Shown in pieces: positions 37,390-56,340 of a stretch of 64,000 bases of DNA (position 1 is its first letter; every line of letters starts with the position of its first letter). Where the stretch lies: positions 62,001-126,000 of the forward strand of contig JARWMV010000036.1 of assembly GCA_030998015.1 (NCBI GenBank). The letters run 5' to 3'. Position numbers and translations under genes: made by a program. The notes under the pieces were generated by a model. The model was not told where the DNA came from, searched no databases, and saw nothing but the letters and a program-made list of their open reading frames with translations. This DNA is from Ceratorhiza oryzae-sativae (Eukaryota; Basidiomycota; Agaricomycetes; Cantharellales; Ceratobasidiaceae).

Positions 37390-38080
37390 CCAGTGCTGCC
37401 CTTTGTGTGGGTGGTTTGGACACCTGTCCATCTATTGCTTCACCCTCAATTCAGTTGAAGACATCCTTGAAGAAGCCAGGCACATTGATTTTAACTGTGT
37501 GATAATCATCAAAGTCCGCCCCCAGAAAGTTGGACAAGCCCAACAAGCCTTCATTACCGAGCTGGGTGCCCCTGAGTGCAAAATTTGCCATTGAACAAAC
37601 AGAGCCACCTTCCCTGCATGCTGCCCCTACTGTCCTAAGAAGGACAAATTTTTATACTACTACACCATCCCCTGCAACCAGCTCTAAGCTGGCAAACCTT
37701 GGCCAACAACTTCTTCATCACCTATTAGATACCATCAAAAATTTCCAAGACAGGTATTGTCACTACTGTAACAAGTACAAAGAAACCTGTGAAAAAGTTC
37801 ATGAAGCTGAGGCCCACTGTGCATACCTAACTGAGCGGTTGCGCGAACATCAGGAGGACTACTTATCCCTCCTCCAAGACCATCTCAGACTAGAAACACT
37901 AGTCCAAGAAACAACTGCACCCCATGAGTACACCTTCCCTGTCTTCTCAACACTGTCAGACCTCCCTCACCCTACTTTTCTAAGTGGCACAGGCTTGCCA
38001 ATTCAGGAAGAAGTACCCCTTCAGGCAGCCCAAGTCAATTCTCCCCAAGGAAGCACTCCTTTGGGATCAGACTAAACTAA
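37390..38080 (+). pseudogene. CCHC-knuckle ORF remnant upstream of element A gag
   Basis: Near 37,390-37,435 one frame reads CPLCGWFGHLSIYC, a perfect CX2CX4HX4C zinc knuckle. It runs to 37,594. A second frame continues to 38,075 with a Pro/Thr stretch and a helical stretch that has repeated Cys/Tyr (YCHYCNKYKETC). The frames overlap, so a frameshift is likely. Gag of element A with its own knuckle lies downstream, so this looks like an extra 5' ORF or a remnant of another element. Function unknown. Confidence 0.5.
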
Positions 38081-38288
38081 AGAGGGTGGTACCACCTTAC
38101 CATTGCCAGGATACCAAGAGTTGGGACCTGGACAATACTTGGCTGAGATTTGGGGGAACTGAAAACTTTGAAATTTATAGACTCATGCAGGGTACAGAAG
38201 TCTTCTACTACCAAAACAATTCCCGGTTTCCTGTAATTCCTTATCGTCTCTGTCGCTCCTAGAATTCATCTGAGATCCTTTTCTGGAA

Positions 38289-39528
38289 ATGGTGTCACAA
38301 CCCTCTGCCCCTGCTTGGGCAAATATGTCTGATGGAGAAAAAGTCATTTACATGCTTCAGTCAATGGACGAGTTGCAAGAACGAACCAACAACCTCCAAA
38401 ATGATATTGGAGATGTTGAGCATAACAATAAGACCTACACCAACTCGCTTGAGGCAAAACTCACAACAAACCAAACCAAGATAGATGCTGATGTGGCTGG
38501 ACTAGCCACCAATGTTAACAACCTAGTTGGCATGTTAACAATACTTCAAACCACTATCACGCGCATGGAGGTGCAAATTAACACCTCCTCAGGTGGCCCA
38601 GGCGCCACCCAAGCACAACCCTCCTCTAGCACAACCCAGTTACAACCAGCCACCACCCCTGGTGGATCAACTGCAAAAGTTAAGATGGCTGCCCCCCAAA
38701 AATTTGATGGCACAAAGCATGAAGATGCCATCTCATTTAGGATCGCATGTGTGTGATACATCAACACAAACATGAGTGGGCACTCTGCAGATCAGGTGGT
38801 CACCTTCATTACATCCTACCTCAAAGGGTCTGCTGCTGAATGGGTTAACTCATATGAGGAATTTGAAATCCTAAACCCTGGAACCACAATTCCATGGCTT
38901 CATGATGCCAACCTGTTTTGGCAGGAATTCACTACCCATTATGGGGACTTGAACTGCACTGAAAATAACTGTGATAAATGGTGGAAACTGGAACAGTCCA
39001 AAACGGTTCAGGATTACCTCACCTTGTTCAACTTATATTCAACAGGGCTCAACTACAATGACATGGCCATGCGTGAACAATTCTATGATGGTCTATCATT
39101 GGATGTAACAGACAGCATGGTGGCCCAAAACTATGACCCCTGCACCAAAACCTTTGCCCAGCTCACCCAGCGGGCCCTGGAAATTGACTGTCACCTCATC
39201 TTGTTTGGTAGCAAAAGGACATCCCATGGAGGCAACAAGTCTAGCAGCAACAATGCCTCATCCAGTAAACTGCTGACAGCCTCCCAAAGTGGCCCCCCAA
39301 AAGAAAAGTTCAAGAGTGGGGAGCAAATATACAAAATCAAGGATGGCAGGGTGGTAAGGGGCCAAATTGTGGCCATTGGGCCCAATGCCAGAGGTTTCAT
39401 GGTCCCCACTGTCTGTTATGACAGTAGTAACTCCAATGTCCAAGAATCCTTCAAAGATATAAAGAAGGATAATCACCTGCTGGCAGCCCCCAAGGCAAAA
39501 GACCCAGATGCAATGGACCTAGATAGTG
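38289..39528 (+). pseudogene. Element A gag, 5' part
   Basis: Starts ATG 38,289 (MVSQPSAPAWANM) with a helical N-terminus, then the retrotransposon gag domain (FITSYLKGSAAEWVNSYEEF, FWQEFTTHYGD, LEQSKTVQDYLTLFN). It ends in a Lys/Asp-rich stretch that runs into AMDLDS. An in-frame TGA at 38,754-38,756 breaks it. The remaining part, with the zinc knuckle, is at 51,320-51,465 on the other side of element B. Confidence 0.85.
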
Positions 39529-40310
39529 TGTCGTGACCCTCTGGAGGCTCCCTTGTGGAGCACTTAAGTAGTGGCTGCGTTGACGGTTTGGTGCTATGCA
39601 GTATGTATTGAGCGTTCTAGTTACAGTGTTTGCTATGGTCTATGGTGGTTGACAAGATAAAGCAAGCTGAGGCGTCCAGTCTTGCTTTATCCTCCTTATA
39701 TATACCTGTGGCTGCGGTGGCTGCGGACGTATTATCTAAGCACACTCTGCAGTAGGAGTAGGTTATGTACAGTACTATGGGTTAGGTAATTGTTTGTCTT
39801 AAGTTTGTGCGGCTCTGAATCTTATAGAGCTGCACAAGGTCCGAGGGGTAGGTGCTGAGGTCACGTGATCCTGCTGTAAGCGCCAAGATCATGTGACAAG
39901 TCGCTCCTTGCTCCAAGTAACAAGGGAGAGAAATGCTGGAGCGAGTTCAGGGTAACCACCATAGGTGCTGAGGTCACGTGATCCTGCTGTAAGCACTGAG
40001 ATCACATGACAACTCACTCCTCGCTCCAAGTAACAAGGGAGAGAAATGCTGGAGTGAGTTCAGGGTAACCACCGTAGGTGCTGAGGTCACATGATCCTGC
40101 TGTAAGCGCTGAGATCACGTGACAACTCGCTCCTCGCTCCAAGTAACAAGGGAGAGAAATGCTGGAGTGAGTTCAGGGTAACCACCGTAAGCGCTGGCTA
40201 AGCGCCGAGGTCACGTGACCTTGTTTATGGCTTGTTCCACTTAGGAAAAATGCCATAAATCTGTAAAAATATTTGGTTGTTTTGTTATGTCCATTTGACA
40301 GGTCATAACA
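39529..40310 (-). repeat. 3' LTR of element B (782 bases)
   Basis: In plus orientation starts TGTCGTGACC and ends GTCATAACA. It holds three 113-base tandem units; the other LTR has two. Confidence 0.92.
39850..40190. repeat. 113-base tandem units inside the element B LTR
   Basis: AGGTGCTGAGG starts at 39,850, 39,963 and 40,076. Each unit carries TCACGTGA-type palindromes and a GCTCCAAGTAACAAGGGAG block. The sister LTR has units at about 50,968 and 51,079 only. Confidence 0.88.
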
Positions 40311-40325
40311 TTATCCCCCCCTTTG
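40311..40325 (-). other. Polypurine tract of element B
   Basis: On the minus strand CAAAGGGGGGGATAA sits directly before the 3' LTR. Confidence 0.75.
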
Positions 40326-40373
40326 GACATGTCTTGGGGGACCTCGAGACATGGTTTAGTTCCTTATGCAAAA

Positions 40374-40503
40374 GGAATCTCATGCACCAAGGAGGTTAAG
40401 GGCGCTGGACTCGAACCAACAACCTTTTGGCTGATTCAGTATTGTTTGATGAGGTCAGGCTGAGTCAGGCTAGACCCCTTAACCTCTCCGTTACATGAGA
40501 TTG
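40374..40503 (-). repeat. tRNA-like T-arm in an imperfect inverted repeat
   Basis: On the minus strand a canonical T-arm (GTTGG-TTCGAGT-CCAGC) with a perfect B-box GGTTCGAGTCC (40,407-40,417) is enclosed by TAAGGGG / GCCCTTA, spacing 85 bases (40,397-40,481). The outer ends (AATCTCATG, AGGTTAAGG) are also inverted copies. No clear A-box or anticodon arm, so I do not call a functional tRNA. It could be a tRNA-derived relic or a 3'-end structure of the element. Confidence 0.45.
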
Positions 40504-40619
40504 TTTTTCTTTTCTTTGTTGTGGAGGTTATTTAGGGGTGAGGATTTGTCTGCTTCTTCTCAGAATGCCCCAACTGTTTGGATGGGCATAGCAGAAGTTG
40601 TACAGTACTGTAAATTATT

Positions 40620-41975
40620 CTAAGGGAATACAAAGAATGGTTTTCCTCCTGCATACACCCATTCCACATTTCTTGATACCCATAAGTCCCCTTCTTCCCC
40701 CTCTATGTCTGACCAACATTTCATGATTGCTGACCAGCTATTTCCCAGAATAACTGTTGGCCGTACCTTCATTGATTTCACGTGCGCGTACCTGCCTGTG
40801 AAGTCCACCTTGTACTGGCTCAGGGCCTTGAGCGAGTACTTCCTGTTCGACTGGACCATGTTGTCCAGGATCCAAATGTCAGCATCTTCTGACAAGTTGC
40901 CCATATTCCACACATTGCACATCCAGCTGTGGCAGCCCTTGGATCGTGCATATGCTGTTTTCCCTGTTCCAGTTTCTCCTTCTATCACCAGGATGCGATG
41001 GCACACCCCTCTTCCCCTCTTCTCGACCTCCTTGGCAAACCATCTGTCTGCTCGGTCAATGTGCTCCCAGTCTTCCAGGACCTCTAACTCCACAGGGATT
41101 GCAGGCATGCAACCCTGGTCTTCCTTGTATGTGTACTTGGCATATGCTCATACCGAGTTCCACGTCGTCACCATCTGGAGGGGGCAGAGGCGCTTGAACG
41201 CCTGGTAGTACTCCTGTTTTGTTGCTGAGGCAACAATCTCTGTCCCATCCTCCAAGTCTGCCTCCATCCTTGACCATTTTCTGCCCTTTCCCTTCACCAA
41301 AATCTCCTCCAACCTTTCCAAGGTCAGGTCCCCCACCATCAGGTCCTCTATCTCCTTGCCATTAGCTCCAACGTCCTTCCAGAGATAGTTGAAGGCATCC
41401 CTTGCTGGGTTGCCTCCTGGTCCGTCCTTGAGGTCTTTGGGCCGTATGTTGGGGTGTTGCCCCTCAAAGTCCCAGAACCCCGCATTCTGGGTGTTCCACC
41501 CGCCCTTCCGTTCCTGACTGATGGAGAGGGCATGGACATGCAGGGGCTGGGTTGGGTCGTAGTTTGGCTCCTCTGGGTTGTGCCGTTCGACCACAGCTAA
41601 GGTTGCCCAGTGATTGGGTCAGTGGCAGCAGAATGCCTTGTATTGGGCAGCGAGCCCACTTGAGGGCTGATCGCGTAGCTTTGACCAGGTCAGCAGCACC
41701 GCCCTGGTCTGGACACAGAATCAGGGGGCCTGTGTGGTTTCGGTCAGCTCTTCAGACCCACGATCCATCAGTGTAAGCTGCATAGAAGCGGGTGAGGGGG
41801 CTTGGCTTGATTCTGAGGGCGCCAGCAATGGCAATGCCGACCTCTGCCCTGCGCTTGATTCGTTTGGCTGGGGTGTTCCCATGTTTGAGCCATCTTTGCT
41901 TAGCATTGTTGGTGTTTTTAGAAGTAGATGTATCTTGTGGGGAGGGCATGAGATGATGGCCCCTGTTACCCCCAA
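40620..41975 (-). pseudogene. Rep-like rolling-circle initiator (HUH nuclease + SF3 helicase), degenerate
   Basis: CRESS-DNA-virus-type Rep, closest in layout to geminivirus/genomovirus Reps by eye. Such proteins nick a circular DNA at a hairpin origin, stay bound through Tyr, and unwind DNA. In one minus-strand frame, in order: motif-I-like VLLTWSK (near 41,680), HUH motif LHVHAL (41,525-41,542), a GRS-like FWDFEGQHPNI segment, motif III YLWKD with the expected catalytic Tyr (41,373-41,393), Walker A GETGTGKT (near 40,965), Walker B DADIWILDN (near 40,870), and motif C VILGN (near 40,745). The frame is closed by TGA at 41,721-41,723, 41,619-41,621 and 41,148-41,150. Final stop TAG at 40,620. 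No ATG is certain at the 5' end, and a competing frame exists at 41,752-41,949. It lies in the sense orientation of element B between pol and the 3' LTR. Not expected to make a full protein. Confidence 0.82.
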
Positions 41976-42430
41976 AGGTGTCCCCTAGATATACCCTCTC
42001 TGGTTGTTGTGGTCACGTGGTTTCCTGATGTAGGCTTGTGCTGGTTATGATGCATCTCCGAGGGGTGCCCTTCCTGCGTTCCCCTGCGTCGGCCTTTCTC
42101 CTCGCTACGCTCGGGGCCTCTGCTCCTCCACTTCGGTCAGTGCCCCCTCTCCAACCCCTCCAGTAGTTAGGGGATAGCGTATATTCATGTGACTAGGCTA
42201 GGTCATGTGATTCCTGTGCTTTGTTGTTTGTTTTCTGGCAGGTGGTCACATGACTAGGCTAGGTCATGTGATTCCCCTGTTTTGTTGTTTGTTTTCTGGC
42301 AGATGGTCATGTGTCTGTTGGTGTCACCTGACTGGACCTTGTTTTGATGTTTGTGCAAGTTATCGTGTTGCACCATGGTTTTTTAATGTTTGTGGTTTTT
42401 GTTGTTTTCCTTCCTCATCCTGTCTTTACT
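41976..42430. promoter_or_regulatory. Divergent intergenic region with 61-base direct repeats and hairpin
   Basis: Lies between the leftward Rep-like gene and the rightward gene at 42,431. Two 61-base direct repeats start at 42,186 and 42,247. The second contains a perfect inverted repeat CACATGAC/GTCATGTG (42,247-42,270) around TAGGCTAG; the first has it with changes. A GC-rich stretch covers 42,060-42,180. The canonical nonanucleotide TAATATTAC is not present. May hold divergent promoters and, speculatively, a former replication origin. Confidence 0.5.
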
Positions 42431-42972
42431 ATGTGTGTTATTTCCCTTAACTACAATCCCCTTGACTGCACCTGCTGGTCTCTCCCTGAGGGGGAGTACT
42501 GCACCTACTGTGATGCTGTGTGCAACGCCTCCCTTGAAGACTTCTATGGAGGTGTTGGGGACTGGTTCTTCTGTGGGGTGCCAGGTACGTGTGTTCGTTC
42601 TTTGTTGTTCTCATGTAGCTAACTTGTTCTGTAGAAGAGCGCATCCTCCTTGATGGTTGGGCCCATGAGGTCACCCTTGAGCATGTCTGGGTGCTTGTTG
42701 ATCAGGACTACAAGTCCTTTGAGGAGTGGTCTCACCAGGCCGCTCTTGCTGAATTCTTCAAGGAGGGTTCTGCTCCCTTGTTTGATGAGGCTTCGCCCTT
42801 TGCAGCATCTGGTTCTGGGTGTTTCCAGAACTACATGGCCAACTTCCCAGGGGGGGAGGCTCCTTGGCTGCAGCCCACTACCTGGTCAGTTGTTCAGACC
42901 AATAAGAAGGATAAAAGGGGCAAGAAGCCCTATACCCGGCCCCTCAAGGGCAAACATAAAAATAAAGAGTAA
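42431..42972 (+). CDS. Two-exon cargo gene X, Cys-rich, unknown function
   Basis: Exons 42,431-42,584 and 42,635-42,972 join in frame through a 50-base GT-AG intron, giving 163 residues. The N-terminal half is Cys rich and acidic/aromatic (CTCWSLPEGEYCTYCDAVC), suggesting a metal-binding or disulfide module. The middle is acidic and helical (SFEEWSHQAALAEFF) and the C-terminus strongly basic (KKDKRGKKPYTRPLKGKHKN), like a nuclear localisation or nucleic-acid-binding tail. An in-frame upstream ATG (42,347) would add a hydrophobic N-terminus; I prefer 42,431. It runs antisense to element B, divergent from the Rep-like gene and convergent with the gene ending at 43,057. No in-frame stop, unlike its neighbours. 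Family not recognised. Confidence 0.6.
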
Positions 42973-43056
42973 AAAGGAAATGTATTAAGTTTGGTGTGTA
43001 AAAGAAAAAATAAAACTCTTATACATTTGGGAGGCACTTCGTGGGAGGCAAAGTGG

Positions 43057-43878
43057 TCATATGGGGGTTGGTTCCAACAGTGGCACCTCCTCCAGAGCTT
43101 TGACAAGCTCATTTTCCCACCAGTCCCAGTCCTGTTTGGCTTCCTCTGCAGCTGGGTCCAGGGTGGGTTCCTTTATTTCTGGCTTGGCTTCTTCCTCAGC
43201 CATGACCAGTGATTCTAGGCTTGATGTAAGGCTTGTCATATCAGTGTCGTAATTGGTGTTTTTGTTTGGGTGCACCTTCACCCAATTTCGGAAGTCGCTC
43301 ATGTTTGCCTGCTTCGTCCTGATAGCAGTAAACATCTCATCAGTGGTAGTTGCTTCGAGCAGTCCCACATACGGTGTGGCTGGTGTCAACTTCCATTCTT
43401 CCAGCAATGCCTTTGCCCGGCGCTCCACCTCCCAGTCCCCCCCGTCTGCCATTTGGCCTGTGGCCCTCCTCTGTTGTCTTGCTGCCTTGGTCACCATGTC
43501 GACTGTTGGTCCCATGATATTGTCAACGACATACATCGGTGTTCTTAGCAAGGCGTTTCTTGTCGTTGGCTTCTGGCTTCCATGCCATGTCAGGACCCCT
43601 AACCTGGGATCCAGGTACTTGTCATTGTCGATCCAGTTCCTTTCATCCCTTAACTTCTTTGGGATGTACACTAGGTTAGCCCCTGGCAACAGTTGTTCGG
43701 CATACCTCTGGGCGTCTTCCACACTGGAGCAGTACATCCCTGGTTTAGGACGATTTTCCCTGCCAGGGTAGGGTGCTGGCCACCTGGTGGTGGGTGGCTG
43801 CCAAAGTGGGGCCACCTGATTTTCAGCAAGTGGTGTGTAACAGTTGGGATGTGCAACTGGGTGAGTGACAAAAGGCAT
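43057..43878 (-). CDS. Cargo gene Y, 273 residues, unknown function
   Basis: Open frame from ATG 43,878 (MPFVTHPVAHP) to the stop at 43,057; the frame is open further upstream, to at least 43,911. The N-terminal part is Pro/Trp/His rich. The middle has charged helices (AARQQRRATGQMADGGDWEV, RAKALLEEW) and the C-terminus is acidic (EEEAKPEIKEPTLDPAAEE, DWDWWENELVKALEEV). No membrane segment or known motif. Same orientation as element B pol, with its 3' end only 84 bases from the 3' end of gene X. The intact frame inside a decayed element suggests recent origin or selection, or chance protection. Confidence 0.5.
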   Translation of the reverse strand: MPFVTHPVAHPNCYTPLAENQVAPLWQPPTTRWPAPYPGRENRPKPGMYCSSVEDAQRYAEQLLPGANLVYIPKKLRDERNWIDNDKYLDPRLGVLTWHGSQKPTTRNALLRTPMYVVDNIMGPTVDMVTKAARQQRRATGQMADGGDWEVERRAKALLEEWKLTPATPYVGLLEATTTDEMFTAIRTKQANMSDFRNWVKVHPNKNTNYDTDMTSLTSSLESLVMAEEEAKPEIKEPTLDPAAEEAKQDWDWWENELVKALEEVPLLEPTPI

Positions 43879-45321
43879 GTTTTGGGGTTTTGCCAGTGTG
43901 TTGTGGTGCAAGTGAGGTGGTAGAGCGGGCTCTGGCCTTTCCTGGGTATCCTGGATGGCTCTTTTTAAAGCTTTCCAGATCCTCGTTTGGTTCTCTTTGG
44001 CCTGCCTTTTGAGTCACCTGAGTGCTGACTTGTCTTGACTGGCATTGGTGCATCTGGTAAGCGCCTTTGTGTTATGGATCACTAACATTTTCTATTATTT
44101 TAGTCCGCTCTGCCAACAAGTGATGCCTCTGTAATTAAATTGGGAAATACTTGAATTTGTATGCACTCTGAATTGTACTATTTTCTGTTCCATTAAATAG
44201 TACAAAATTCCCGCTCTCCAACGCATATTTTATTAAGATTTTATGATAAGATCTCAGAGAGATACAGAGGTTGCGATATTTCCTCTTATCAGGAGATATT
44301 GATTACAACATCGCACCGCTCATATCTCGGCAACCGCTTACGCTATCAAAGCGATCTTGTGCTCTATCGATAGCCAATCTTCGGCGGTATCTGCTGCCCG
44401 AAGATCGTCGCGATCCACCGGATCCTCGCGCCGGAATGGCCCGAAGATCATTAGAATCTTACTGGACCATCAATCAAGATCTAATGACTCCAGTGAGTCA
44501 GGAGAGCTTCCCAAATTGATCCAGAAGCTTCTCTGACTCACTTTATGACTCACTGAGATGTAGCCTCCATTCATTACATGTATATACTATGATAATATGA
44601 TCTACAAGCCAATAGCAGGTCTCAGATGCATCAATGCCTTCGATCCACACCCTGTCTTTACTCTTTTATCCTATACTGGGCTAGGGTGTACCCCAAGTAT
44701 AGCAGTACCCTCTTTTGATGATTGCACTGGCATGCATGTATCTATTTGGCTCTGGAATGCCCTCCTCAGGGTATAAAAGGACCTCCTCTGAGGCCCTTCC
44801 AGACCGCCTCCCTCTACTCAACCCAGACCGGTTATTGGTTTCTTTTCTCTTTCTATTTCTCTTGTCTGTGTGTGATTTCTTATATAACTAGTACTGAGGA
44901 ATATAGTACCATATTAGTTATATACTGTCTGAGTCATTGTATCTTATATACAGAGATATATAAGGATACAATATTGCCTGATTGAGCGTGACATTAAGTA
45001 CCAGCTATTAGAGGAAATCTAAGTACCTGTAGCTGAGGAAGTACACGCATTAGGCAGCCCACCATTTATCCTATAAGATATCGCTTAAGCCTAGTATTAA
45101 GATTAGTATCAGTTAGTCCAAGCGACTAGGGCTGAACTACATTTAAGATATCTAAGGGAACCTGACCATAGTAGTCTTGCTCTTTATACCTATAAATTAG
45201 TCAGTTTACACTGTGAAAGATTAAGACTACCTTGAGTGTTACTTGATCGCATTGCAACTACTTTGAGCCTTCTTACTCTAGTCTAAGAAGTATTGAGTAC
45301 GATTAGTGTATACTAACATAT
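43879..45321. other. Non-coding cargo segment with a TATA promoter
   Basis: Between gene Y and the end of pol. Contains GGGTATAAAAGGACC near 44,777 inside an inverted repeat CCTCAG/CTGAGG, on the plus strand, which looks like the U3/R part of another LTR. An isolated CpG-rich patch lies at about 44,300-44,460. A decayed plus-strand coding trace lies at 45,110-45,260. I cannot place LTR ends. Confidence 0.4.
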
Positions 45322-48300
45322 CTACATTTGCTTAAGCTCTAGATATTCAAGTGTACCCTGACCCGTAACACTTTGCAAGTCATTTAGAACCTCTTTCATG
45401 TCAGCAAACTTGCTGGCACGTTCCATTGTGTCTTCTATTGGGTCGTAGCCCTTCCATCTGATTTGGTAAAACAGCTTGCCATTCTGCCATTCATAATTTG
45501 CAATGTGGTCCACCTTGTATTCCTCCTCTCCTTTTTCCGTTATGATTGGTGGTGGTTTGGCCTGCCTTCTTCAGAAGTCTTTATCTTCTGTGAATGGTGA
45601 GAGGAGATTTACATGGAATACATTGTGTACACGTATGGTTTTAGGTAGGTCCAGGCAATATGCATGGGATGAGATCTTTTCTGTGACTCCAAAGGGCCCC
45701 CCTTTTCGGTTGTCCAGTTTCTTGGAGGGTCTCTTGGACGAGAGGTTTGTTAGGAGCAGCCAAACCTTGTCTCCTACCTTGAATTCCCTCCCTTTCTTTT
45801 CCATTTGTTGGTGTAATTCCATTGAGGCTCTTGCCTCATCCCATACCTTTTCCATTTGATTGCGCATGTTGTCTGCAGCAGGTGCCTCAGATGGTTCTTC
45901 TCCCTCTCGGATAACCCATCTTGGGTTTTTTCCATATACTGTTTCAAATGGGGTTTGTCCTGTTGTAGCATTTACGTGGTTGTTATGGCAGAATTCGGCA
46001 ATGGGTAACCATTTTACCCAATCATCTTGTCTATAATTGCAGAAGGTTCTTAAGAACCCTTCTACCCATTGATTTGTCCTTTCCGACAGACCATCTGTTT
46101 CTGGATGGAAAGCAGTGGAGAATCTGGGCTTTGTCCCAATTCCTTTGTATAGGGCTTTTAGGAATTGGCTGTTAAAGGTTGGCCCTCGGTCTGAGACAGT
46201 GGTTTCTGGGGTCCCGTGATGTCTCCATACTTCCCTTATAAATATTTCTGCCAGTTCTTCTGCATTGGTGCTCTCCAGACATGGTACAAAATGGGCCTGC
46301 TGGGAGAAGCAATCTACAACTGTCAAGATACTGTCGTACCCCTTTGAGATGGGTAATTTGACGATGAAATCGTATGCAACATCTGCCTATGGTTTCCATG
46401 GGATTGGTAAGGACTTCAGGGGAGTGCCTTGTTTGTGTCCTTTGCTTCTTTGACATGTTTCACAAGATTCCACGTATTGGTTTACTTGGGCCTTCATTCC
46501 TGGCCAATAGTAATCCCTTGATAGTAATTCTAGTGTTCGGGCTTGTCCCTGATGACCTGCCACTGGGGCGTCATGGCACTCCTCAAGGAGACTCAACCTC
46601 AAGTCCTTGTCATCCGGGATGTAGAGCCTATCGTCATACCTTAATAGGCCCTCCTTCATTTCATACCGTCTAAATTCCTTCTGTACTGAGGGCGGTAGTT
46701 GTTCTTTATTTGCCACACTCAGCCTTAAGGATCTGATAAATTCGTCTTCTTCCTGAGCTTCTTTAAGCTCTTCCCAGAAATTCCCCTGTACTTCTGCCAT
46801 GAAACCTATGAACCTTTCTTCTGGAATCATGATCTGTGGTTCCATAGGGGTATCCCCATGGTCGCTCCTTCTGGAAAGGGCATCTGGCTTCTGTGAGAGT
46901 TTCCCTGGTCTATACACAATCTGAAAATTGAAGGGTGCCAGAGTGAGATACCATCTGGCATGCCTTCTATTCCACATCTGGGCATTTTGCCAGTACTGGA
47001 GGTTCCTATGGTCAGTGTATATCACAATAGGTTCCTCTGTCCCTTCTAAGTATAACCTCCAGTGCTCTAAGGACCTAACAATTGCAAGCAACTCCTTGTC
47101 GTAGGTGTCATAATTTTTCTCTGGTGGGGTGAAGCTCTTCGATAGGAAGGCAATTGGATGCAATCGGTTGTCATCACCCTTTTGGCTTAGTACCGCCCCC
47201 ATGGCCACTCCTGAGGCGTCTGTTTCCAGTATGTATGGCCTGTTTGGGTTTGGGTGGATCAGGACCGGTTCTCTTGCTACTGCTTCTTTGATAGCTTCAA
47301 ATGCTTCCTGTTGTTTTCTTTCCCACAGGAATTTGACATCTTTTTGGGTGAGATCTGTGAGGGGTTTGGCTAAGGTACTAAACTTCTCTATCCACCTTCT
47401 ATAGAACCCCACGAAGCCTAGGAAGGCTTGGACTTCTTTTACTGTGTTAGGTTCTGGCCATTCTAGAACTGCCTTTACCTTTTCCTTTTCCATCGATATC
47501 CCTTCTGGGGATATGACAATTCCAATGAAGCTTACCTCCTTCACAAAGAACTGACACTTGTGTGGTTTGAGGAAGAGGTGGTTTTCCCTCATTCTTCTTA
47601 ACACTTCCCTGACATGTTGTACGTGTTCTTCCCTGTTTCTGGAAAACACTAGTACATCGTCCATGTAGATTACCACATAATCGTCTATTATTCACGGAAC
47701 TTTTCCATCATGAACCTGGTAAAGGTTCTTGGTCCTTCTTTTACTCCGAATGGCATGACCAAGCATTCAAACTGGCCTTCTCCTGTCCTGAAAGCTGTTT
47801 TCCATTCGTCTCCCTCTTTTACCCTGATGTTGTTGAACCCCCATCGAACATCCATTTTTGAATAGATGGTTGCATCCTTCAGTCTCTCAATCAATTCTAT
47901 TTGGATTGGAAGTGGAAACCTGTCTGGCTTGGTGATGTCATTCATCTTACGGTAGTCGACTACCAACCTAAGCCCTCCATCTGCTTTGTTCACATAGAAA
48001 CAGGGTGCAGCTACAACTGACTGGCTGGGCCTTATTTTCCCGTTTCTTAGTTCCTCCTCTAGGTACTCCCTGAGCGCCTTTGTTTCTGCTGGCGACATAC
48101 TGTACCTCTTTGCAGGCTTTGGCAGCTCCGCTCCCTCGATCAGGTCCATTTTGAAGTCTAGGTTACCTCGGTGGGGTGGAAGTTCTCGGAAACCTTCTTC
48201 CCCAAATAGGTCTTCAAAATCCCTAAATTCTTCTGGGATTTGTAGGCTTTCACTTGCTGCCCTTGCCTTGATTTCGTCTGGGTATGAGATGGTAAGGTCT

Positions 48301-48683
48301 TTCCAATCTATGATAGGTTCTGCTTCTTCAAGCCATTCTTTCCCTAGGACTATGTCTGTGTCACCTAGGGTCATTACATAAAGGGAGCATTTTAGTGTCT
48401 TCCCTTCCACTTCGATGTTTAGTTCTGCCCTTTCTTCTATGGCATCCTTGATTTCATTTCCATCAATGGCCACAATTGATTTCTTGTGTTTGAGGGGAGT
48501 GGTTGGAATCCCTTTTTCCCTTGAATAGGCCTTATCGATGAAGTTGGTTGAAGATCCTGAGTCAATCAGCGTCTTAGCTGGTTCCATGATTCCCTCTACC
48601 GTAGTGTATATTATTGATTGATTACTAGACTTCTTGAGGTAACATACATCTGCGGTAGGGGTTATATTGGGGTCCTCCAACAT
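45322..48683 (-). pseudogene. Element B pol: protease, RT, RNase H, integrase, chromodomain
   Basis: Begins ATG 48,683. Protease active site LIDSGSSTNF (near 48,560). RT with VVDYRKMND and YMDD (near 47,660). RNase H with ILETDASGVAMGAVLSQ and TDHRNLQYW. Integrase zinc finger (HDAPVAGHQG ... CETC) and DDE core (Asp in TVVDCFS near 46,320, Asp in SDRGPTF near 46,195, Glu in DGLSERTNQW near 46,080). The C-terminal chromodomain (EYKVDHIANYEWQNGKLFYQ, YDPIEDTME, 45,340-45,520) marks it as a chromovirus, whose integrase targets marked chromatin. Breaks: tandem stops and a one-base loss before the YMDD part (near 47,690), TAG at 46,387-46,389 where Trp is expected, TGA at 45,571-45,573. Not autonomous now. 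Confidence 0.92.
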
Positions 48684-48700
48684 GGAAGTGGTAGGACCAA

Positions 48701-50530
48701 TTAGTTTTCCGACTCAGAGCTGCTTTCTTCCTCAACTTGTCTGCTGGCCTTCCCTTGTATCTTAGCTTTGTCGTAGGTCCACTGGCCTCGGCACTCCTTC
48801 AGGACATGCCCTGATTTACCGCATTTGATACAGAGTCCTTCTTTCCTTCGCCTGTCCTTTTCACTGTTTGGTATCCTTACCATGTTGTTGGTTTGGGTAT
48901 TCCCCTGTTTGCCGCTGGTCCCTAAAGGCTTGTTCCCCCCTTGTTTGTATTTCGCTGGTGCCCAGGTTGAATTTGATGAGTTGCTGGTCCTTGTATTCAT
49001 TTTCTGGTTTGCAAACTGCATGTTCCATTTTGCAGGCAAAGTCAATTAATTGATCTAAGGTATATGATGGACCTTCAGCCTCATTTGCCAGTACTTCAAT
49101 CCTTAAGATCTCTTGTCGTACTTCGGGTTTTAACCCTTCCCTGAATTGGTCCTTGAGGGCTTCCTGGTTCCAGTCTACCTCTTGGATCAGGATCCGGAAT
49201 TGGGTAGCATAATCCAATGCACTCTTGGTCTGTGTTAATTTCCTTAGTTTCCGGATGGTCTTTTCCTTTATGACTGGGTCATTAAAAGCATCCAGGAATC
49301 CCTTCCTGAAATCCTTCCAGGATGCAAGAATACCTGTGTGTTCGCCTGCTAGTAGTTTCCGGGTAAGGTTGTGCCCAGTTTGCTGCTTCCCCATCCTCCA
49401 TGTTCATTAGCACAGCAGATATCTTTTTTTGGTCATCAAAGGCTGATTCGTCATAGTCAGCAAAGAAAAGTTCCATGCTGATTATGAAGTTCTCTGCTTC
49501 CTTCCCCTTTTTCCCATTAAATTTGCTGGGTCTCCCTAGTCTCGCCTCCTTAGGAGTGTGGTTTGCAGCAAGGGTAGGTTGGTTTGCTTGGGATGGAGGT
49601 TCTGTTCGGGTCTTATTGTGGACTCAGCCTGGAAGGTTCTTCCCAGAAAGGGTGTTCGTACTGGGGAGGCTGAGGGGGATCGTGAGGGGCTTCCTATGAC
49701 CACCCTAGTTCTTCCCCTGGTTTCTTCTGTCCTTTCCCTTGGCCTTCCTGCTTCAGTTGTTTTCCGGAGCTCATTTCCTAGATCGGTTACCCTTGTTCTA
49801 GTGCGATTAGGATCTCCCCTGTGTTTTCGGTTTTCTTCTCTAAGCTTTCGAGCTTTCGCTCTTGCATTCCCAGTACCCGGTTTATTTCCATGGAGATGTC
49901 CTTTAATTCTTTTATCAGGTTCCCCATTTCTGCTTTTAGGTCGTCCTGGTTCTTTGCCACATAGAGGACATTTTTGTTGGATGTTTCCATTGACCTTACC
50001 ATCCAGTCCACGTTTCCTTCTTGTCGGGTTAGTGATATTTGACACTGATTTATACCCGTGATTGCCTTTTCTAGTTCCCTATGATTATTGTCTCTAAGTT
50101 CCTTGAGCCCTGCCCTGATGGCTGTGGCAATGGTGTGAATAGGGTTGGCAGTGGCTATGGTTCTGGGACCTGGCTGGGGTTGTGTCCTTGCCTCTTCCGC
50201 CAAGGCCGTGCCTTGTTCGTATATGGTTCGGGTCATATCTTCTACCTCATCCCTCTCTGGATTTGAGATATCTTCTGGGTCTGGATTTATCAGGTGAATT
50301 GGCGGTTGAGGGCTGCGGAGTGGTATTCCCCCTATTTCCCCTCCCAGGATGGGGGCCCGAGTGGGGTTGGGTTGAGCCACTGGTTGTGGGTTTTGTGGCA
50401 ACCCCCCTGGCATTCCTTGGAGGGTCTCATCTGGGTTACCTTCAGCCTCTGGGGAAGCAATGGGTTTGGGTGATTGTGGCCTACTATTTGCCACTCTGCT
50501 TTGAGATCGAGTTTGTGGTCTCTGTGACAT
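48701..50530 (-). pseudogene. Element B gag with CCHC zinc knuckle, frame-broken
   Basis: ATG 50,530 opens a Pro/Ser-rich N-terminus and a long helical region (about 250 residues) that ends at 49,787. The frame then shifts to a basic Arg/Ser-rich stretch, and again to the capsid core (MELFFADYDE near 49,470; WKDFRKGFLDAFND; LTQTKSALDYATQFRILIQE). The zinc knuckle CIKCGKSGHVLKEC lies at about 48,790-48,832, and gag ends at 48,701. At least two shifts break it. Pol starts 17 bases later in a separate ATG frame, so gag and pol were probably separate or linked by a frameshift. Confidence 0.85.
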
Positions 50531-50637
50531 AGTTTCTTTATGTTCTCTTATGTATCACAGGAGTTAGCTGGTTTTCTCGTGTACTCAGCCCTTAGTATCT
50601 GTGTAGTATACTTATGTTCGCCACTAGTTAAGTTAAG

Positions 50638-50649
50638 AGCTTGCTTTAT
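50638..50649 (-). other. Candidate self-priming site of element B
   Basis: Two bases inside the 5' LTR boundary, the minus strand reads ATAAAGCAAGCT. The LTR contains its exact 12-base complement AGCTTGCTTTAT (minus strand, 50,791 to 50,780), about 36 bases downstream of a TATATATAAGG box, where the RNA 5' end is expected. No tRNA-type TGG-starting site is present at the junction. Confidence 0.65.
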
Positions 50650-50651
50650 AA

Positions 50652-51314
50652 TGTCGTGACCCTCTGGAGGCTCCCTTGTGGAGCACTTAAGTAGTGGCTG
50701 CGTTGACAGTTTGGTGCTATGCAGTATGTATTGAGCATTCTAGTTACAGGGTTTGCTATGGTCTATGGTGGTTGACAAGATAAAGCAAGCTGAGGCGTCC
50801 AGTCTTGCTTTATCCTCCTTATATATACCTGTGGCTGCAGTGGCTGTGGACGTATTATCTAAGCACACTCCAGTAGGTGTAGGTTATGTACAGTACTATG
50901 GGTTAGGTAATTGTTTGTCTTAAGTTTGTGCGGCTCCGAATCTTATAGAGCGCGCAGGTCCGAGGGGTAGGCGTGAGGTCACGTGATCCTGCCGTAAGCG
51001 CCAGATCACGTGACAACTCGCTCCTCGCTCCAAGTAACATGGGAGAGAAATGCTGGAGCGAGTTCAGGGTAACCACCGTAGGTGCTGAGGTCACGTGATC
51101 CTGCTGTAAGCACTGAGATCATGTGACAACTCGCTCCTTGCTCCAAGTAACAAGGGAGAGAAATGCTGGAGCGAGTTCAGGGTAACCACCGTAAGCGCCA
51201 GCTAAGTGCCAAGGTCACGTGACCTTGTTTATGGCTTGTTCCACTTAGGAAAAATGCCATAAATCTGTAAAAATATTTGGTTGTTTTGTTATGGCCGTTT
51301 GATGGGTCATAACA
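50652..51314 (-). repeat. 5' LTR of element B (663 bases)
   Basis: Mirror partner of the LTR at 39,529. Contains the TATATATA box (near 50,822), an 11-base hairpin GATAAAGCAAG/CTTGCTTTATC, and two 113-base units with TCACGTGA palindromes. Confidence 0.92.
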
Positions 51315-51319
51315 TAGTG

Positions 51320-51465
51320 CAGGAAAAGGAAAGGGTACAAATACGTGCTACAACTGTGGAGGGCGTGGTCATATTGCCACCAAATGCCCCTCAGCCAAAA
51401 TGTCAGGATACAAGGCAGTGGTTGAGGATGTAGAAACAACTGATGAGGAGTTGGTAAAAGAATGA
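51320..51465 (+). pseudogene. Element A gag, 3' part with zinc knuckle
   Basis: Continues the gag frame from 39,528 across element B. Carries CYNCGGRGHIATKC, a CCHC nucleocapsid knuckle, and ends at TGA 51,463-51,465 after ELVKE. Confidence 0.85.
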
Positions 51466-54400
51466 GCTCAAACTGTGCCAGGGGGGTGGTCTTGGGCACT
51501 ATGTTACAAAAAGTGCAGACTGAAAATAAAAATATAGAAATGGAATGTATGTTGTTAGGAAACCAATCACAACTTCAGTTTTTCTTTCATGCATTCCCTC
51601 TGTGCATAACCCCTGAACACAAGTCTGCATACAATATGAAAAAGTTCAACAGATGGGCCATGATTGATTCAGGGGCCACATCAGTATTTATACACAAAGA
51701 CCTTGTTAAACAATATCATATCCCAACTGTCTCCCTCAAAACACCAAAAAAACTACAAATAATCAATGGAAGGGAGATCAACTCTTGGTCTGTGACCCAT
51801 TATTGCACCTTTGAATTGTGCATCCAAGAGCACTGAGAGATTCTCAGTGCTTATGTTGTGAATGTTGGCAAAAAACAATCTGGTCCTGGGCATGTCGTGG
51901 CTCAAATTCCATAATCCCAACATTGATTGGGATGGAAAGGACATGAAATTCAACTCATCAATATGCTTAAAGCATTGTATTACCAAACCCCTACACATGC
52001 AAGCAAATGAACCCAGAGAGCTCCAGTTGGACTCTTTAGACTTGCTTCCAGCAAAATACAAAGAATTCCAGGAAATATTTGCTGAAGAAGACAATGTCCA
52101 GCCCTTACCACCTCACAGGAAGTGGGATATGGAGATAGACTTAAAACCAGATGCTAAGCCAAGGCACAGCCCCATATACAGAGTGGGTGTCAAAGAGGAT
52201 GCAGAATTGCACAAGACCTTGGACTGTCAGTTGAAAGCAGGGCATATTAGACCCTCAAGGTCACCAATGGCATCCCCTGTCATATTTGTTAAAAAGAAGA
52301 ATGGGAAGCTGTGCATGTGCATCAACTACTGGTGGCTAAACGAGATGACTGTCTCCAATGTATACCCACTCCCACACATTAATGATATTGTGGAAACCTT
52401 GTGTGGGGCAAAGATATTCACTAAGTTTGATTTAAAGGGGGGTTTCAATCTTATACAGATTCAGGAAGGAGATGAATGGAAAGCTGCTTTCAAGACCAAG
52501 TATGGGCTGTATGAGCCCTTAGTCATGCAATTTGGCCAACAGAATGCACCTGGGACTTTTATGGCTATGATCCAAGAAGAATTCCAAGACATTGAAGGCA
52601 TCTACATTGTAATTTACATGGATGATATACTGGTATTCTCCAAAACCCAAGAGGAGCATGACAAACATGTCCAAGAAGTCTTACGTTGTCTTCAAAAGGC
52701 TGGCTTGTACTGTGCTCTGGAGAAATGTGTCTTTGATGTCACTGAAGTTGATTACCTGGGGATAGTAGTAACCCCCCAGGGGATTAAAGTAGACCCAGCC
52801 AAGGTTGAAAAGGCTGTTCAATGGCCAACCCCTACCAACCCAACTGAAGTCCTGGAAGGGTTGGAATTTGCAAATTGGTTAAGCCACTTCATAAAGGACT
52901 TCTCAAAAATCACAAAATGCCTTTATGAATTAGTCAAGAAGGATGTAAAATGGGAATGGACAGAAGAAAGAGATTGGGCATGGAACTTGCTGAAGCAGAA
53001 ACTAAAGGAAGCCCCCCTTCTCATCCAGCCAGAGCCCAATAAACCATTTATCTTGGAAACAGACACCTCAGGCTATGCCACAGGTGCTGTATTATTGCAA
53101 TATGGAGAAGACAGAATGCTTCACCCAATCTCCTACTACTTCAAAGCAATGGTCCCAGCAGAAAGAAATTATGATATCTACAACAAGGAAATGCTGGCAA
53201 TCATAAAGGCCCTCAAACACTGGTGTCACTTACTAGAAGGGGCTGAACACCCAGTAAACATTGTTTGTGATCACAAGAATCTGGAATATTGGAAGACAAA
53301 TCGGCCACTGAATGGCTGAGTCACACAATGGCATGAGTTCCTGTCCATGTTCAAATTCAAGATTCTATACATTGATGGGGCAAAGAATGGCTGGGCAGAC
53401 ATACTCTCTAGGCTGTCAAGGCACATTCCTAAAGAGGGGGGGTGAGAGCCAAGCTCTGCTTGTGCAAAACCAATTTTTGGAATTAAAATCTCTGTGGTTA
53501 CAAGCAATCATGCTGGACCATGACCTGGAACAACTCATTAGGGATGCAATCCCAGGGGATGAACACCTATCAAAAGTGCTGAAAGCCTTAGATGATAATG
53601 AGAAGGTCAAAAATTGGGAATGGGATGAAGGACTTTTACAACACAAGGGCTGGATCTATGTCCCAAATAACAAAGAACTGTGCAAGCTGGTCATCGAAAG
53701 TCAGCATGATAACCCAGCAGCAGGACATCCAGGGCAATTCTGAACATATGAGTTGTTAAACTGCAAATATATGTGGTCAGCAATGAAAAAATCAGTCAAC
53801 AAGTACATCACACATTGCGAATCCTGTATCAGGAATAAGCACAGCAACCAAGTTCCCCCAGGGCTCCTAAACCCAATACCAGCACCAGAAAAACCTTGGG
53901 AAGAAATCACCTGTGACCTAATTACTGGGCTACCCCTGTCAGAAGGGTTTGATGCTATATTTACAGTTGTCAATTGCCTGACAAAAATGGTCCACTTTAT
54001 TCCATGTCAATCAGAAGCCAGTGCAATGGACTGCACAAACCTTTTCCTAACTTATGTATGGAAACATCACAGGTTACCACAAAAAACCATCTCAGACCAT
54101 GGCCCCAACTTTGCATCCAAATTCCTAAGGCACCTGTATAAACAGCTGGATGTAAAACCATCCTACTCCACAGCATATCACCCCCAAACAGATGGCCAGT
54201 CTGAAAGGGCTAACCAAGTAGAAGGGTACCTGAGACACTACGTATCAGATCAGCAGGACGACTGGGTCTCACTCTTACCCTTGGCTGAATTTGCCTACAA
54301 CAATGGTGTCAATGCCTCAACTGGCAAATCACCATTCTTTGCAAACTACAGTTTCCACCCAAGGCTGGCAGTGGGGGACAAGGAGTGACAAGAATTTCCC

Positions 54401-54835
54401 TTAGCAGACAATCATGCAGAATGGCTTCAAAAGGGCCATGATGAACTCAAGGCTGCTCTGGAATTATCAAACCAGAGGATCAAAGAATATTATGATCAGA
54501 AGCATTGGACCCCAGAAGCCATCAAGGTGGGAGACAAAGTCTGGCTTGACACCAAGAACATATGGACACAACAGGCCTCCAGGAAACTGGCCCACAAGAG
54601 AGTTGGACCATTCAAGGTGGTAGCACAACATGGCACTCACGCCTTCAAACTGGACTTGCCAGTAACCATGAAAATACACCCAGTATTTCATGTTTCACTC
54701 CTGACCAAACATAAAGACAATCCCTATGGACGTCAGGTTCCCCCACTACCACCTGTGGTAACTCCAGAAGGGGCAGAAGAATTTGAAGTAGAACAGATCA
54801 GGTTAATACTGAAATCTAGGTGGAGCTAGGTTGGG
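51462..54835 (+). pseudogene. Element A pol: protease, RT, RNase H, integrase
   Basis: Protease with AMIDSGATSVFI (near 51,655). RT with FDLKGGFNLIQI, YMDD (52,615-52,626) and DVTEVDYLGIVV. RNase H with ILETDTSGYATGAVL. The integrase finger ends in CESC (near 53,818), with core Asp in TCDLITG (near 53,915), Asp in SDHGPNF (near 54,095) and Glu in DGQSERAN (near 54,200). A C-terminal part has KVGDKVWL and HPVFHVSLL and no visible chromodomain. Stops at 51,834, 53,317, 53,741 and 54,386 are all TGA where Arg would fit. One-base shifts lie near 51,870 (A run) and 53,437 (G run). Inactive. Confidence 0.9.
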
Positions 54836-54989: not shown

Positions 54990-56340
54990 ACTCAACTTGC
55001 ATGCAATCAGCTGCGAGCCTGGCCCGCATGGACGGCATGGGGACTGAGGTCACGTGACCTGAGCTGATTACATCATAAATGTCTTTGGTATTCATGTGCA
55101 AGCACCCATGTTCTGGTGTATGATACACAGTCTCATTGAAACAGATTGACATTTTGAACAGGTTGTCCATCAGGGCTGATAACCATTCAGCAAGAATAAA
55201 CATCATTATTAAATTTTTAACAGCTCCTGAGGCAGCTGTGGAGACCCTCTGCTGCAACTGTGGGCCTGGCCCGCATGGACAGGACGGAGAGTGAGGTCAT
55301 GTGACTATCATTGATTTGCTTGAACAATGTTGATAATTATGTCTGAGTGTCAATGATCTTGTGTTGGATACACAGATTAGTTAAGACAGATGTTGCCCAT
55401 CCAGACATATAATCACTCAGTGAGAATTAATATCACTATTTAATGTTTTACACCTCCTGAGGCAGCTGTGGAGACCCTCTGCTACACCTGCGGGCCTGGC
55501 CCGCATGGACAGGATGGAGAGTGAAGTCACGTGATTACCAGTGATTTGTGCAAACATTGTCAATAATCATGTGTTTGATACACGGATTTGTTAAGACAGA
55601 TGTTGCCCATCCAGATGTATAATCACTCGGTGGGAATAAATATCACTGTTAAATGTTTAACAGCTCCTGAGGCTGCTATGGAGACCCTCTGATACACCTG
55701 TGGGCCTGGCCTGCACCAACACCATGGAGAACAATGTCATGTGACTACCGCTTATTCACAGAAACACTGCCAATAATTGTGTGAGTGTCAATGATCTTGT
55801 GTTTGATACACGGATTCATTGACACAGATGTTGTTCATCAGGGTTTATAATCACTCAGTGAAAATAAACATCAACATTAAATGTATAACAGCTCCTGAGG
55901 TAGCTGTGGAAACCCTCTGCTCCATCTGCAGGCCTGGCCCGCATGGACAGGACAGAGAGTGATGTCACGTGATATATGTTGATTAAATAAACAATGTTGA
56001 CAATCATGTGTGGGCACCCAGTTCTGGGGCACAATACACAGATTCATTCAAATAGATTGAGAGTTTGAAAAATCTGTTCACAATGGCTTATATTTTGTGA
56101 CTGAGAACAAATGCTTAAAGGTCCTGGAGGTACATGTGGAGCCCCTCTGGGCCAACAGCTGCGGGCCTGGCCTGCATGGATGGGGCAGGAAACCTGTCAC
56201 ATGACACCACTGTGTGCAGCATTACATGTATATACTGCAATGATAAAAAATATAGCAATCAAAGAGGAATTATGTTTTTTTGAATGTAGATGATTCTCCC
56301 AACTCAGCCTGAGGCTATGTAAGACATCTACAGTATGTAC
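54990..56340. repeat. Satellite-like array, six diverged units of about 230 bases
   Basis: GCCTGGCC-type starts fall at 55,017, 55,264, 55,494, 55,704, 55,932 and 56,165 (spacing 210-247). Each unit has a GAGGTCACGTGA-type palindrome, a TGATACACRGATT block and GAGACCCTCTG. Non-coding, adjacent to the end of element A pol; may be the element's 3' UTR or LTR region. Confidence 0.85.

What the first reader, a model, noticed from the sequence alone, without database searches (positions are those of the whole stretch)
40620..41975. Geminivirus-like Rep (HUH nuclease + SF3 helicase) carried inside an LTR retrotransposon
Seen: one minus-strand frame shows a motif-I-like VLLTWSK, LHVHAL, a GRS-like HPNI segment, YLWKD, Walker A GETGTGKT, a Walker-B-like WILDN and VILGN, in the order and spacing of CRESS-DNA-virus Rep. 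It lies between pol and the 3'LTR of element B, in the same orientation, and is framed by B's exact target duplication. Known: such Rep genes occur as endogenous copies in eukaryotes, including fungi. Inferred: capture of a replication initiator by a chromovirus, or insertion of a Rep-bearing DNA into it. The frame is closed by three TGA stops, so this copy is inactive.
Basis: partly seen in the sequence, partly recalled or inferred. Interest (0 to 1): 0.92.

Follow-up and report, generated by a model that had tools for sequence, protein, structure and literature searches.

The report
Retrotransposon carrying a viral replication gene
A family of copy-and-paste jumping genes in a soil fungus has long carried, and kept in working order, a gene resembling the DNA-replication starter of small circular viruses, which suggests that this RNA-copying element may also handle its DNA in a virus-like way.

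Summary
A Rep-like frame (41984-40620, minus strand, three in-frame TGA) lies between pol and the 3' LTR of a chromovirus-type Ty3/gypsy element, 39529-51314, with target duplication TAGTG. It is not a one-off. The genome, apparently of the Ceratobasidium/Rhizoctonia group, holds at least 150 matches. Of 97 pol matches, 88 have a same-strand Rep downstream. Of 33 top-scoring copies, 32 run from Rep into the same LTR end, with 32 different flanks; the 33rd meets a contig end. In 32 of 150 matches the frame is uninterrupted for at least 426 residues. A sister subfamily (two copies read) has the same layout. Between subfamilies synonymous sites are near saturation while Rep stays 65-74% identical, about as constrained as integrase: an old, selected capture. 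The Rep call rests on ordered motifs, including a GRS like that of fungal genomoviruses. Pfam matches stay below cut-off; structure prediction failed. A conserved antisense two-exon gene diverges from Rep. The mechanism (DNA-stage nicking or rolling-circle copying) is inferred. My paper searches listed no LTR element with a Rep.

The parts
39524..39528 (.). target site duplication TAGTG, left copy
39529..40310 (-). 3' LTR of element B (782 bp; 3.1 tandem units of 113 bp at 39848-40196)
   Evidence: same end in 32 of 33 copies inspected
40311..40326 (-). polypurine tract (AAAGGGGGGGATAA) next to the 3' LTR; a similar tract in the sister subfamily
   Evidence: identification by eye
40620..41147 (-). 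Rep C-terminal piece, 175 aa: Walker A, Walker B, motif C (SF3-helicase-like)
41148..41618 (-). Rep middle piece, 156 aa: motif II HVH, GRS-like FWDFEGQHPNI, motif III YLWK (HUH-nuclease-like)
41619..41720 (-). Rep piece, 33 aa, with motif I VLLTWSK
41721..41984 (-). N-terminal extension in the same frame, probably unstructured (inferred)
42020..42395 (.). region between the divergent Rep and antisense genes: conserved block (77% over 168 columns between subfamilies), 61-bp direct repeats with inverted arms around loop CTAGCCTA, TCACGTGA-like palindromes; candidate two-way promoter and/or Rep-binding site (inferred)
42431..42584 (+). antisense gene, exon 1 (Cys-rich, starts MCVISLNYNPLDCTCW); 61-63% identical in the sister subfamily
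42585..42634 (+). intron of the antisense gene (GTACGT...GCTAAC...TAG, 50 nt), my reading; keeps the frame
42635..42972 (+). antisense gene, exon 2
43057..44013 (-). 318-aa sense ORF of unknown function; 42% identical to its counterpart in the one sister copy compared
44070..45370 (.). solo LTR of another family nested in B, TSD CTTTG (not part of B itself)
   Evidence: reading by eye
45371..45570 (-). chromodomain remnant (read from the sequence; Pfam Chromo in sister copy L052)
45571..46386 (-). integrase (SH3_Tf2-1 over cut-off, rve below it)
46387..47691 (-). RT end, RNase H, integrase zinc-binding domain
47688..48713 (-). aspartyl protease and RT start
48701..50554 (-). gag (Retrotrans_gag in 48864-49403; zinc knuckle CIKCGKSGHVLKEC by eye), in several frames in this copy
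50635..50651 (-). putative primer-binding site (TTATAAAGCAAGC), also in the sister subfamily
   Evidence: identification by eye
50652..51314 (-). 5' LTR of element B (663 bp)
51315..51319 (.). target site duplication TAGTG, right copy

Best explanation
Element B is a copy of a Ty3/gypsy chromovirus family of Ceratobasidium-type fungi that long ago captured a Rep gene of the geminivirus/genomovirus type (HUH nuclease plus SF3-like helicase) between pol and the 3' LTR, where it sits divergently from a small antisense two-exon gene. SHOWN: Rep travels with the retrotransposon in most copies examined, predates the split of two subfamilies, keeps its catalytic motifs in most family members and is under purifying selection about as strong as that on integrase; this copy is dead. 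INFERRED: Rep is made as a separate protein, perhaps from an internal two-way promoter, and acts at the DNA stage of the cycle. It would nick and unwind the double-stranded cDNA or its circles at a site in the intergenic region or the LTR, which share TCACGTGA-like palindromes, thereby multiplying extrachromosomal copies or aiding end processing before integrase acts.
For: 151 helicase-piece and 150 nuclease-piece matches in 48.8 Mb, lower bounds. Same-strand Rep within 20 kb downstream of 88 of 97 pol matches, 69 of the 88 at 3.4-4.5 kb; 80 of 87 at pol identity of 90% or more; an opposite-strand Rep within 20 kb for 13 of 97. 32 of 33 distinct copies inspected (top-scoring ones, not a random sample) share the LTR end, with 32 different flanks. 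Sister copies C20 and C237 have their own LTR pairs (653 and 660 bp) around pol and Rep, with TSD CCCAT at C20. Rep between subfamilies: pS 0.67-0.75, pN 0.13-0.19, dN/dS 0.07-0.12 in the 8 of 12 comparisons with finite dS; integrase-chromodomain pN 0.17-0.18, 70-71% identity. Motif conservation. GRS 8 and 9 of 16 identical to the two Botrytis genomovirus GRS printed in PMC8309985; with the first of them 3 of 20,000 shuffles reach 8. Gemini_AL1_M aligns nearly full length (profile 10-106 of 107) at the expected place. Conserved intergenic block and inverted arms.
Against: No Rep profile reaches its curated cut-off. A whole-genome search with Gemini_AL1_M gave three weak matches, none at a Rep copy, and Gemini_AL1 gave none. 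PDB sequence searches gave no Rep. Both AlphaFold models are poor (mean pLDDT 35 and 40); fold searches with them gave no match at E <= 0.001 (one viral Rep at rank 21, E 0.14, which means nothing at this model quality). Motif I is atypical (uuTW, without the usual Y and Q) and the least conserved. No CRESS nonanucleotide-like site (NANTATTAY) occurs in the window's B, so no canonical rolling-circle origin is seen. TCACGTGA-like sites also occur outside B (31 in the window, 16 in B) and may be host transcription-factor sites. Nine of 97 pol matches lack a listed Rep. Nothing here tests expression, nicking or circles.
Confidence: 0.45

Rival explanations
1. Rep is a selected component but acts on the host or on transcription rather than on element DNA: it regulates the element's own promoters and/or pushes the cell into a replicative state (as geminivirus Rep does; recalled), which favours reverse transcription and integration.
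For: Selection and conserved motifs; divergent gene pair with conserved intergenic palindromes also found in the LTR; no canonical origin found.
Against: Nuclease and ATPase residues are kept in most family members, more than a DNA-binding regulator would need.
Confidence: 0.25
2. Rep is a protective cargo: a virus-derived Rep that interferes with circular ssDNA mycoviruses (or with competing elements), selected because it helps the host and so the element.
For: The printed GRS motif it resembles is that of fungal genomoviruses; endogenous Reps in fungi are known.
Against: Selection tracks the element, with Rep and integrase similarly constrained; intact catalytic motifs are not expected of a dominant-negative; no matching virus was found (in a collection that may be poor in such viruses).
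Confidence: 0.12
3. Rep is a neutral passenger that hitch-hikes with the LTR element.
For: This copy and others have stops: 57 of 150 listed helicase-piece matches have a stop inside the piece.
Against: Purifying selection over a time in which synonymous sites neared saturation; 32 of 150 matches with an uninterrupted frame of at least 426 residues.
Confidence: 0.04
4. The protein is an HUH/P-loop protein not derived from CRESS viruses (a plasmid-type or unknown replicase) whose likeness to geminivirus Rep is convergent.
For: Profile scores below cut-offs; atypical motif I.
Against: A GRS between motifs II and III, which PMC11052389 describes for geminiviruses and genomoviruses (passage); central-domain match in the right place.
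Confidence: 0.12

Closest known systems
Geminivirus-like transposon of the truffle Tuber melanosporum (Liu et al. 2011, PMC3198968; passages and section 8 seen)
   Same: High-copy fungal mobile element with a geminivirus-like Rep gene.
   Different: There a DNA transposon with 37-bp terminal inverted repeats, transposase ORFs and no obvious TSD, with an interrupted Rep frame; here an LTR retrotransposon with gag-pol, LTRs, TSD, uninterrupted Rep frames in some copies and evidence of selection.
Terminons, giant Penelope-like retroelements of bdelloid rotifers (review PMC6431247; passages seen)
   Same: A reverse-transcribing element that carries a rolling-circle Rep; the review suggests circular intermediates.
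   Different: PLE-class, telomeric, up to 40 kb, not LTR elements; the Rep type was not compared here.
LTR retrotransposons of Adineta vaga with captured ORF3s (PMC5408684; part of the abstract and passages seen)
   Same: An extra enzymatic ORF3 beside gag and pol in retrovirus-like elements; the review places such captured ORFs downstream of pol.
   Different: GDSL esterase, DEDDy exonuclease or env-like ORFs; no Rep in the passages seen.
Genomoviridae / Geminiviridae Rep (motifs from PMC8309985 and PMC11052389; passages seen)
   Same: Order of motif II, GRS, motif III, Walker A, Walker B, motif C; GRS half identical.
   Different: Motif I lacks Y and Q; no capsid gene recognised, no nonanucleotide origin; located in a retrotransposon.
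Chromoviruses (Ty3/gypsy with chromodomain; definition recalled)
   Same: gag, protease-RT-RNase H-integrase-chromodomain, LTRs, PPT, 5-bp TSD.
   Different: Extra 3' module: 318-aa ORF, antisense gene, Rep.

Membership tests
Ty3/gypsy chromovirus | two LTRs with TG...CA ends and a short TSD | tested here: met
   TGTTATGAC...GTCACGACA on the element strand, TSD TAGTG
Ty3/gypsy chromovirus | order protease, RT, RNase H, integrase | tested here: met
Ty3/gypsy chromovirus | chromodomain at the integrase end | tested here: met
   PF00385 25.4 bits (cut-off 25.1) in sister copy L052; 22.4, below it, in L051; a remnant in the window read by eye
CRESS Rep (geminivirus/genomovirus type) | motif II HUH and motif III YxxK | tested here: met
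CRESS Rep (geminivirus/genomovirus type) | motif I uuTYxQ | tested here: inconclusive
   LLTWSK: uuT kept, Y and Q absent; Thr in 27 of 38 (consensus from PMC11052389)
CRESS Rep (geminivirus/genomovirus type) | GRS between motifs II and III | tested here: met
   RFWDFEGQHPNILPKD in copy L018, 8 and 9 of 16 identical to the two Botrytis genomovirus GRS
CRESS Rep (geminivirus/genomovirus type) | SF3 Walker A GxxxxGKT, Walker B uuDD, motif C uxxN | tested here: met
   this window copy reads WILDN at Walker B, many other copies WILDD
CRESS Rep (geminivirus/genomovirus type) | Pfam Gemini_AL1 / Gemini_AL1_M above cut-off | tested here: not met
   best 19.5 bits v 24 for Gemini_AL1_M, 16 of 53 members matched at all; Gemini_AL1 in 1 of 53 at E 0.23
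CRESS Rep (geminivirus/genomovirus type) | fold of HUH and SF3 domains | tested here: inconclusive
   low-confidence models, no significant fold match
CRESS virus or RCR replicon | nonanucleotide stem-loop origin | tested here: not met
   no NANTATTAY in the window's B; four scattered matches in other loci, not followed
CRESS virus or RCR replicon | capsid gene | tested here: inconclusive
   the 318-aa ORF and antisense exon 2 reach no Pfam cut-off; the 318-aa ORF has no PDB match at E <= 5
Helitron or other self-mobile Rep element | own termini not coincident with the LTR element | tested here: not met
   32 of 33 copies inspected end at the LTR boundary

The most novel reading that the evidence does not exclude
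A hybrid retro/rolling-circle element: the chromovirus-encoded Rep nicks LTR circles of the element's cDNA at a hairpin site (arms around CTAGCCTA) in the conserved intergenic region and amplifies them by rolling-circle replication, so that one RNA template yields many DNA copies or a persistent episome for integrase; the antisense gene, transcribed divergently as in CRESS viruses, would be a helper of that stage.
Probability: 0.22. Interest if true: 0.95.

Novelty: new variant of a known kind. Interest (0 to 1): 0.82.

Why it matters
Retrotransposons amplify through RNA and small circular ssDNA viruses through Rep-driven DNA copying. An LTR retrotransposon that has kept a Rep with its catalytic motifs under selection joins the two strategies in one element. 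It makes an open question testable: can a retrotransposon amplify its cDNA as DNA? It also shows how virus-type replication genes become lasting parts of cellular mobile elements. The family is abundant (at least 150 matches in 48.8 Mb) in what looks like a fungal group with plant-associated members.

Tried and rejected
Rejected: (1) Rep as a chance insertion with its own target duplication: copies end at the LTR boundary and sister copies share the layout. (2) Alternative genetic code (TGA as an amino acid): not tested; judged needless because other copies have open frames without it. (3) Canonical CRESS origin: none found in the window's B. (4) tRNA gene near 40400-40500: ARAGORN (bacterial code) found none in 38000-52000.

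Led nowhere: single-sequence PDB searches, PHROGs, profile PDB searches, whole-genome Pfam searches, viral-contig scans (no relative; one contig, not used; none), plasmid tblastn, two AlphaFold jobs of low confidence and two fold searches with them, which I use as no evidence.

Rows dropped before a count: of 99 pol rows, the last two, which are second fragments of copies already listed, were left out (97 used). The Rep list there was the 150 helicase-piece rows plus 14 nuclease-piece rows chosen.

Full report
What is there. The minus strand of the window carries an LTR retrotransposon, element B, at 39529-51314. Its LTRs are 39529-40310 and 50652-51314; in a 782-column alignment 636 columns are identical, 27 are mismatches (23 of them transitions) and 119 are gaps, most of them one 113-bp repeat unit. 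The flanks hold TAGTG on both sides. Pfam finds Retrotrans_gag, aspartyl protease, reverse transcriptase, RNase H and integrase domains in order; a sister copy has a chromodomain just above cut-off. B interrupts a plus-strand element whose gag (38757-39536) breaks off at the left LTR. B itself holds a solo LTR of another family, 44070-45370, with TSD CTTTG (by eye).

The Rep frame. Between pol and the 3' LTR, on the same strand, one frame (41984-40620) is cut by three TGA codons. I searched its pieces apart. The tool calls such counts lower bounds. Of the 150 listed helicase matches, 93 have no stop inside the piece and 32 of these lie in an uninterrupted frame of at least 426 residues (recount). 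Five such copies were translated and aligned.

Rep belongs to the retrotransposon. Of 97 pol matches used (99 listed, two second fragments dropped), 88 have a same-strand Rep within 20 kb downstream, 69 of them at 3.4-4.5 kb, median about 4.1 kb; for pol identity of 90% or more it is 80 of 87. An opposite-strand Rep lies within 20 kb for 13 of 97. The nine without a Rep were not examined. The reverse figure, 85 of 150 helicase matches with a listed pol upstream, is lower; only 97 of 1,214 pol candidates had been scored. From the other side, of 33 distinct copies (38 loci less five repeats; the best-scoring ones, not a random sample), 32 run from Rep into the same LTR end, and what follows differs in all 32; the 33rd is cut by a contig end. 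That is the pattern of an internal gene of an LTR element at many insertion sites.

Age and selection. Pol matches at about 65% identity at C12, C20 and C237 also have a Rep (65-74% identical to the window's pieces) downstream on the same strand. A fourth 65% pol match, on C249, has no listed Rep. For C20 and C237 I fetched the ends: both have LTR pairs around pol and Rep (653 bp at 94%, 660 bp at 92%); C20 has TSD CCCAT, C237 shows none. Between the subfamilies Rep shows pS 0.67-0.75 and pN 0.13-0.19; dN/dS is 0.07-0.12 in 8 of 12 comparisons and not computable in 4 because dS is saturated (NG86 with Jukes-Cantor, imprecise so near saturation, and the comparisons share sequences). The integrase-chromodomain part shows pS 0.77-0.78, pN 0.17-0.18 and 70-71% identity; the 318-aa ORF only 42% identity, dN/dS 0.27-0.28. 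So Rep is about as constrained as the integrase. Within the main family dN/dS is 0.28-0.49 for ten pairs of five intact copies, which is weaker and includes decay after insertion. Differences among 13 copies are mostly transitions (3,575 of 4,173 pairwise differences, 2,161 of CpG type), as expected of methylated repeats.

Is it a Rep? [quoted passage not shown] conservation). The GRS of copy L018, RFWDFEGQHPNILPKD, has 8 and 9 of 16 residues in common with the GRS of two Botrytis genomovirus-like Reps (PMC8309985, one passage); with the first of these, 3 of 20,000 shuffles of the protein reach 8 and none more. The six motifs in order occur in 0 of 200,000 shuffles, under a pattern that I wrote after seeing the protein and with motif I relaxed to uuT. 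Motif I (LLTWSK) lacks the usual Y and Q and is the least conserved (Thr 27 of 38). Pfam Gemini_AL1_M matches 16 of 53 family members, best E 0.001 and 19.5 bits against a cut-off of 24, nearly full length and in the right place. Gemini_AL1 matches 1 of 53 at E 0.23. Other weak matches are as frequent or more so (nSTAND3 in 35 of 53, AAA_22 in 19, both at the P-loop). Against the reading, no Rep profile passes its cut-off, PDB sequence searches show no Rep, both AlphaFold models are poor, and fold searches with them show nothing usable. I put the Rep identity at about 0.9 and a genomovirus/geminivirus type origin somewhat lower.

Relatives. Protein searches found 50, 78 and 41 proteins (overlapping sets, candidates capped in the first two). 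All hits that bear an organism name are Ceratobasidium (AG-Ba, with RhiJN and RhiLY tags, 395, 428, 394, 414, UAMH 11750), called hypothetical; others are unnamed proteins, mostly from short contigs. One cluster stands for 38 sequences, so the gene is repeated there too. That the window's genome is of this group is inferred from these hits. A paper on such Rhizoctonia genomes discusses LTR elements but its main text has no 'geminivirus', 'gypsy' or 'virus' (PMC7884421, term search and passages).

What stands beside Rep. Upstream, in the opposite direction, is a small gene (42431-42972, plus strand) with a 50-nt intron (my reading) and a Cys-rich first exon. Its first exon is 61-63% identical in the sister subfamily, dN/dS 0.21-0.33 over 51-52 codons; with so few codons this is suggestive only. 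The region between it and Rep is conserved (77% over 168 columns), while a DNA comparison of this stretch between subfamilies aligns otherwise only pieces of pol, the 318-aa ORF, the antisense exons and a further 49 columns of the same region. It holds inverted arms CAYRTGAC / GTCAYRTG around the loop C(T/C)AGCCTA (once TTAGCCTA) in copies of both subfamilies. TCAYRTGA palindromes number 7 and 5 in the LTRs and 4 in this region, and none in the rest of B, but 15 more lie elsewhere in the window, so they may be host-factor sites. No NANTATTAY nonanucleotide occurs in the window's B.

Mechanism. What is shown: an internal, old, selected gene with conserved catalytic motifs. What is inferred: a role at the DNA stage, such as nicking and unwinding cDNA or its circles, possibly with rolling-circle copying. 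A regulatory or host-directed role is the main rival. A review of giant transposons, on rotifer Terminons, also reads Rep association as a hint of circular intermediates (PMC6431247, passages).

Known or new. Rep inside a fungal TIR transposon is known (Tuber), Rep in Penelope-like Terminons is known, and extra ORFs in LTR elements are known. My searches bearing on a Rep in an LTR retrotransposon (open-licence PMC papers only; only the top 15 of 67, 10 of 20, 12 of 289 and 12 of 35 were listed, and I saw titles and abstract starts) showed none. Subscription papers and repeat databases were not searched. I therefore rate it a new variant of a known kind.

Noticed in passing
window 42431-42972 (+): Antisense two-exon Cys-rich gene inside the retrotransposon, divergent from Rep, with its first exon 61-63% identical in the sister subfamily.
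   Followed up: partly
window 43057-44013 (-): 318-aa sense ORF of unknown function between pol and Rep, at least 126 matches in the genome.
   Followed up: partly
window 44070-45370: Solo LTR (1301 bp, TSD CTTTG) of another family nested in B; pieces of the same repeat also occur beside B in several other copies (such as L010, L022, L030, L031, L037, L038).
   Followed up: partly
window 46390-47691 v 40620-41975: B's pol piece is listed at 100% (protein, rounded) with three other copies while its Rep region is at most 95% identical (DNA) to any listed copy: the copy may be a mosaic made by template switching.
   Followed up: no
window 40369-40505: tRNA-like stretch (GGTTCGAGTCC on the minus strand) between inverted AATCTCATG / CATGAGATT arms, just inside the 3' LTR, seen by eye; ARAGORN calls no tRNA.
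   Followed up: partly
window 38289-39536 and 51447-54829 (+): Plus-strand Ty3-like element A, whose gag and pol are separated by the insertion of B.
   Followed up: no
window 55179-55973: 210-bp tandem repeat, 3.6 copies, with TCACGTGA-like sites.
   Followed up: no
window 17196-20924 (+): 1242-aa uninterrupted ORF, perhaps another retroelement pol; not examined.
   Followed up: no
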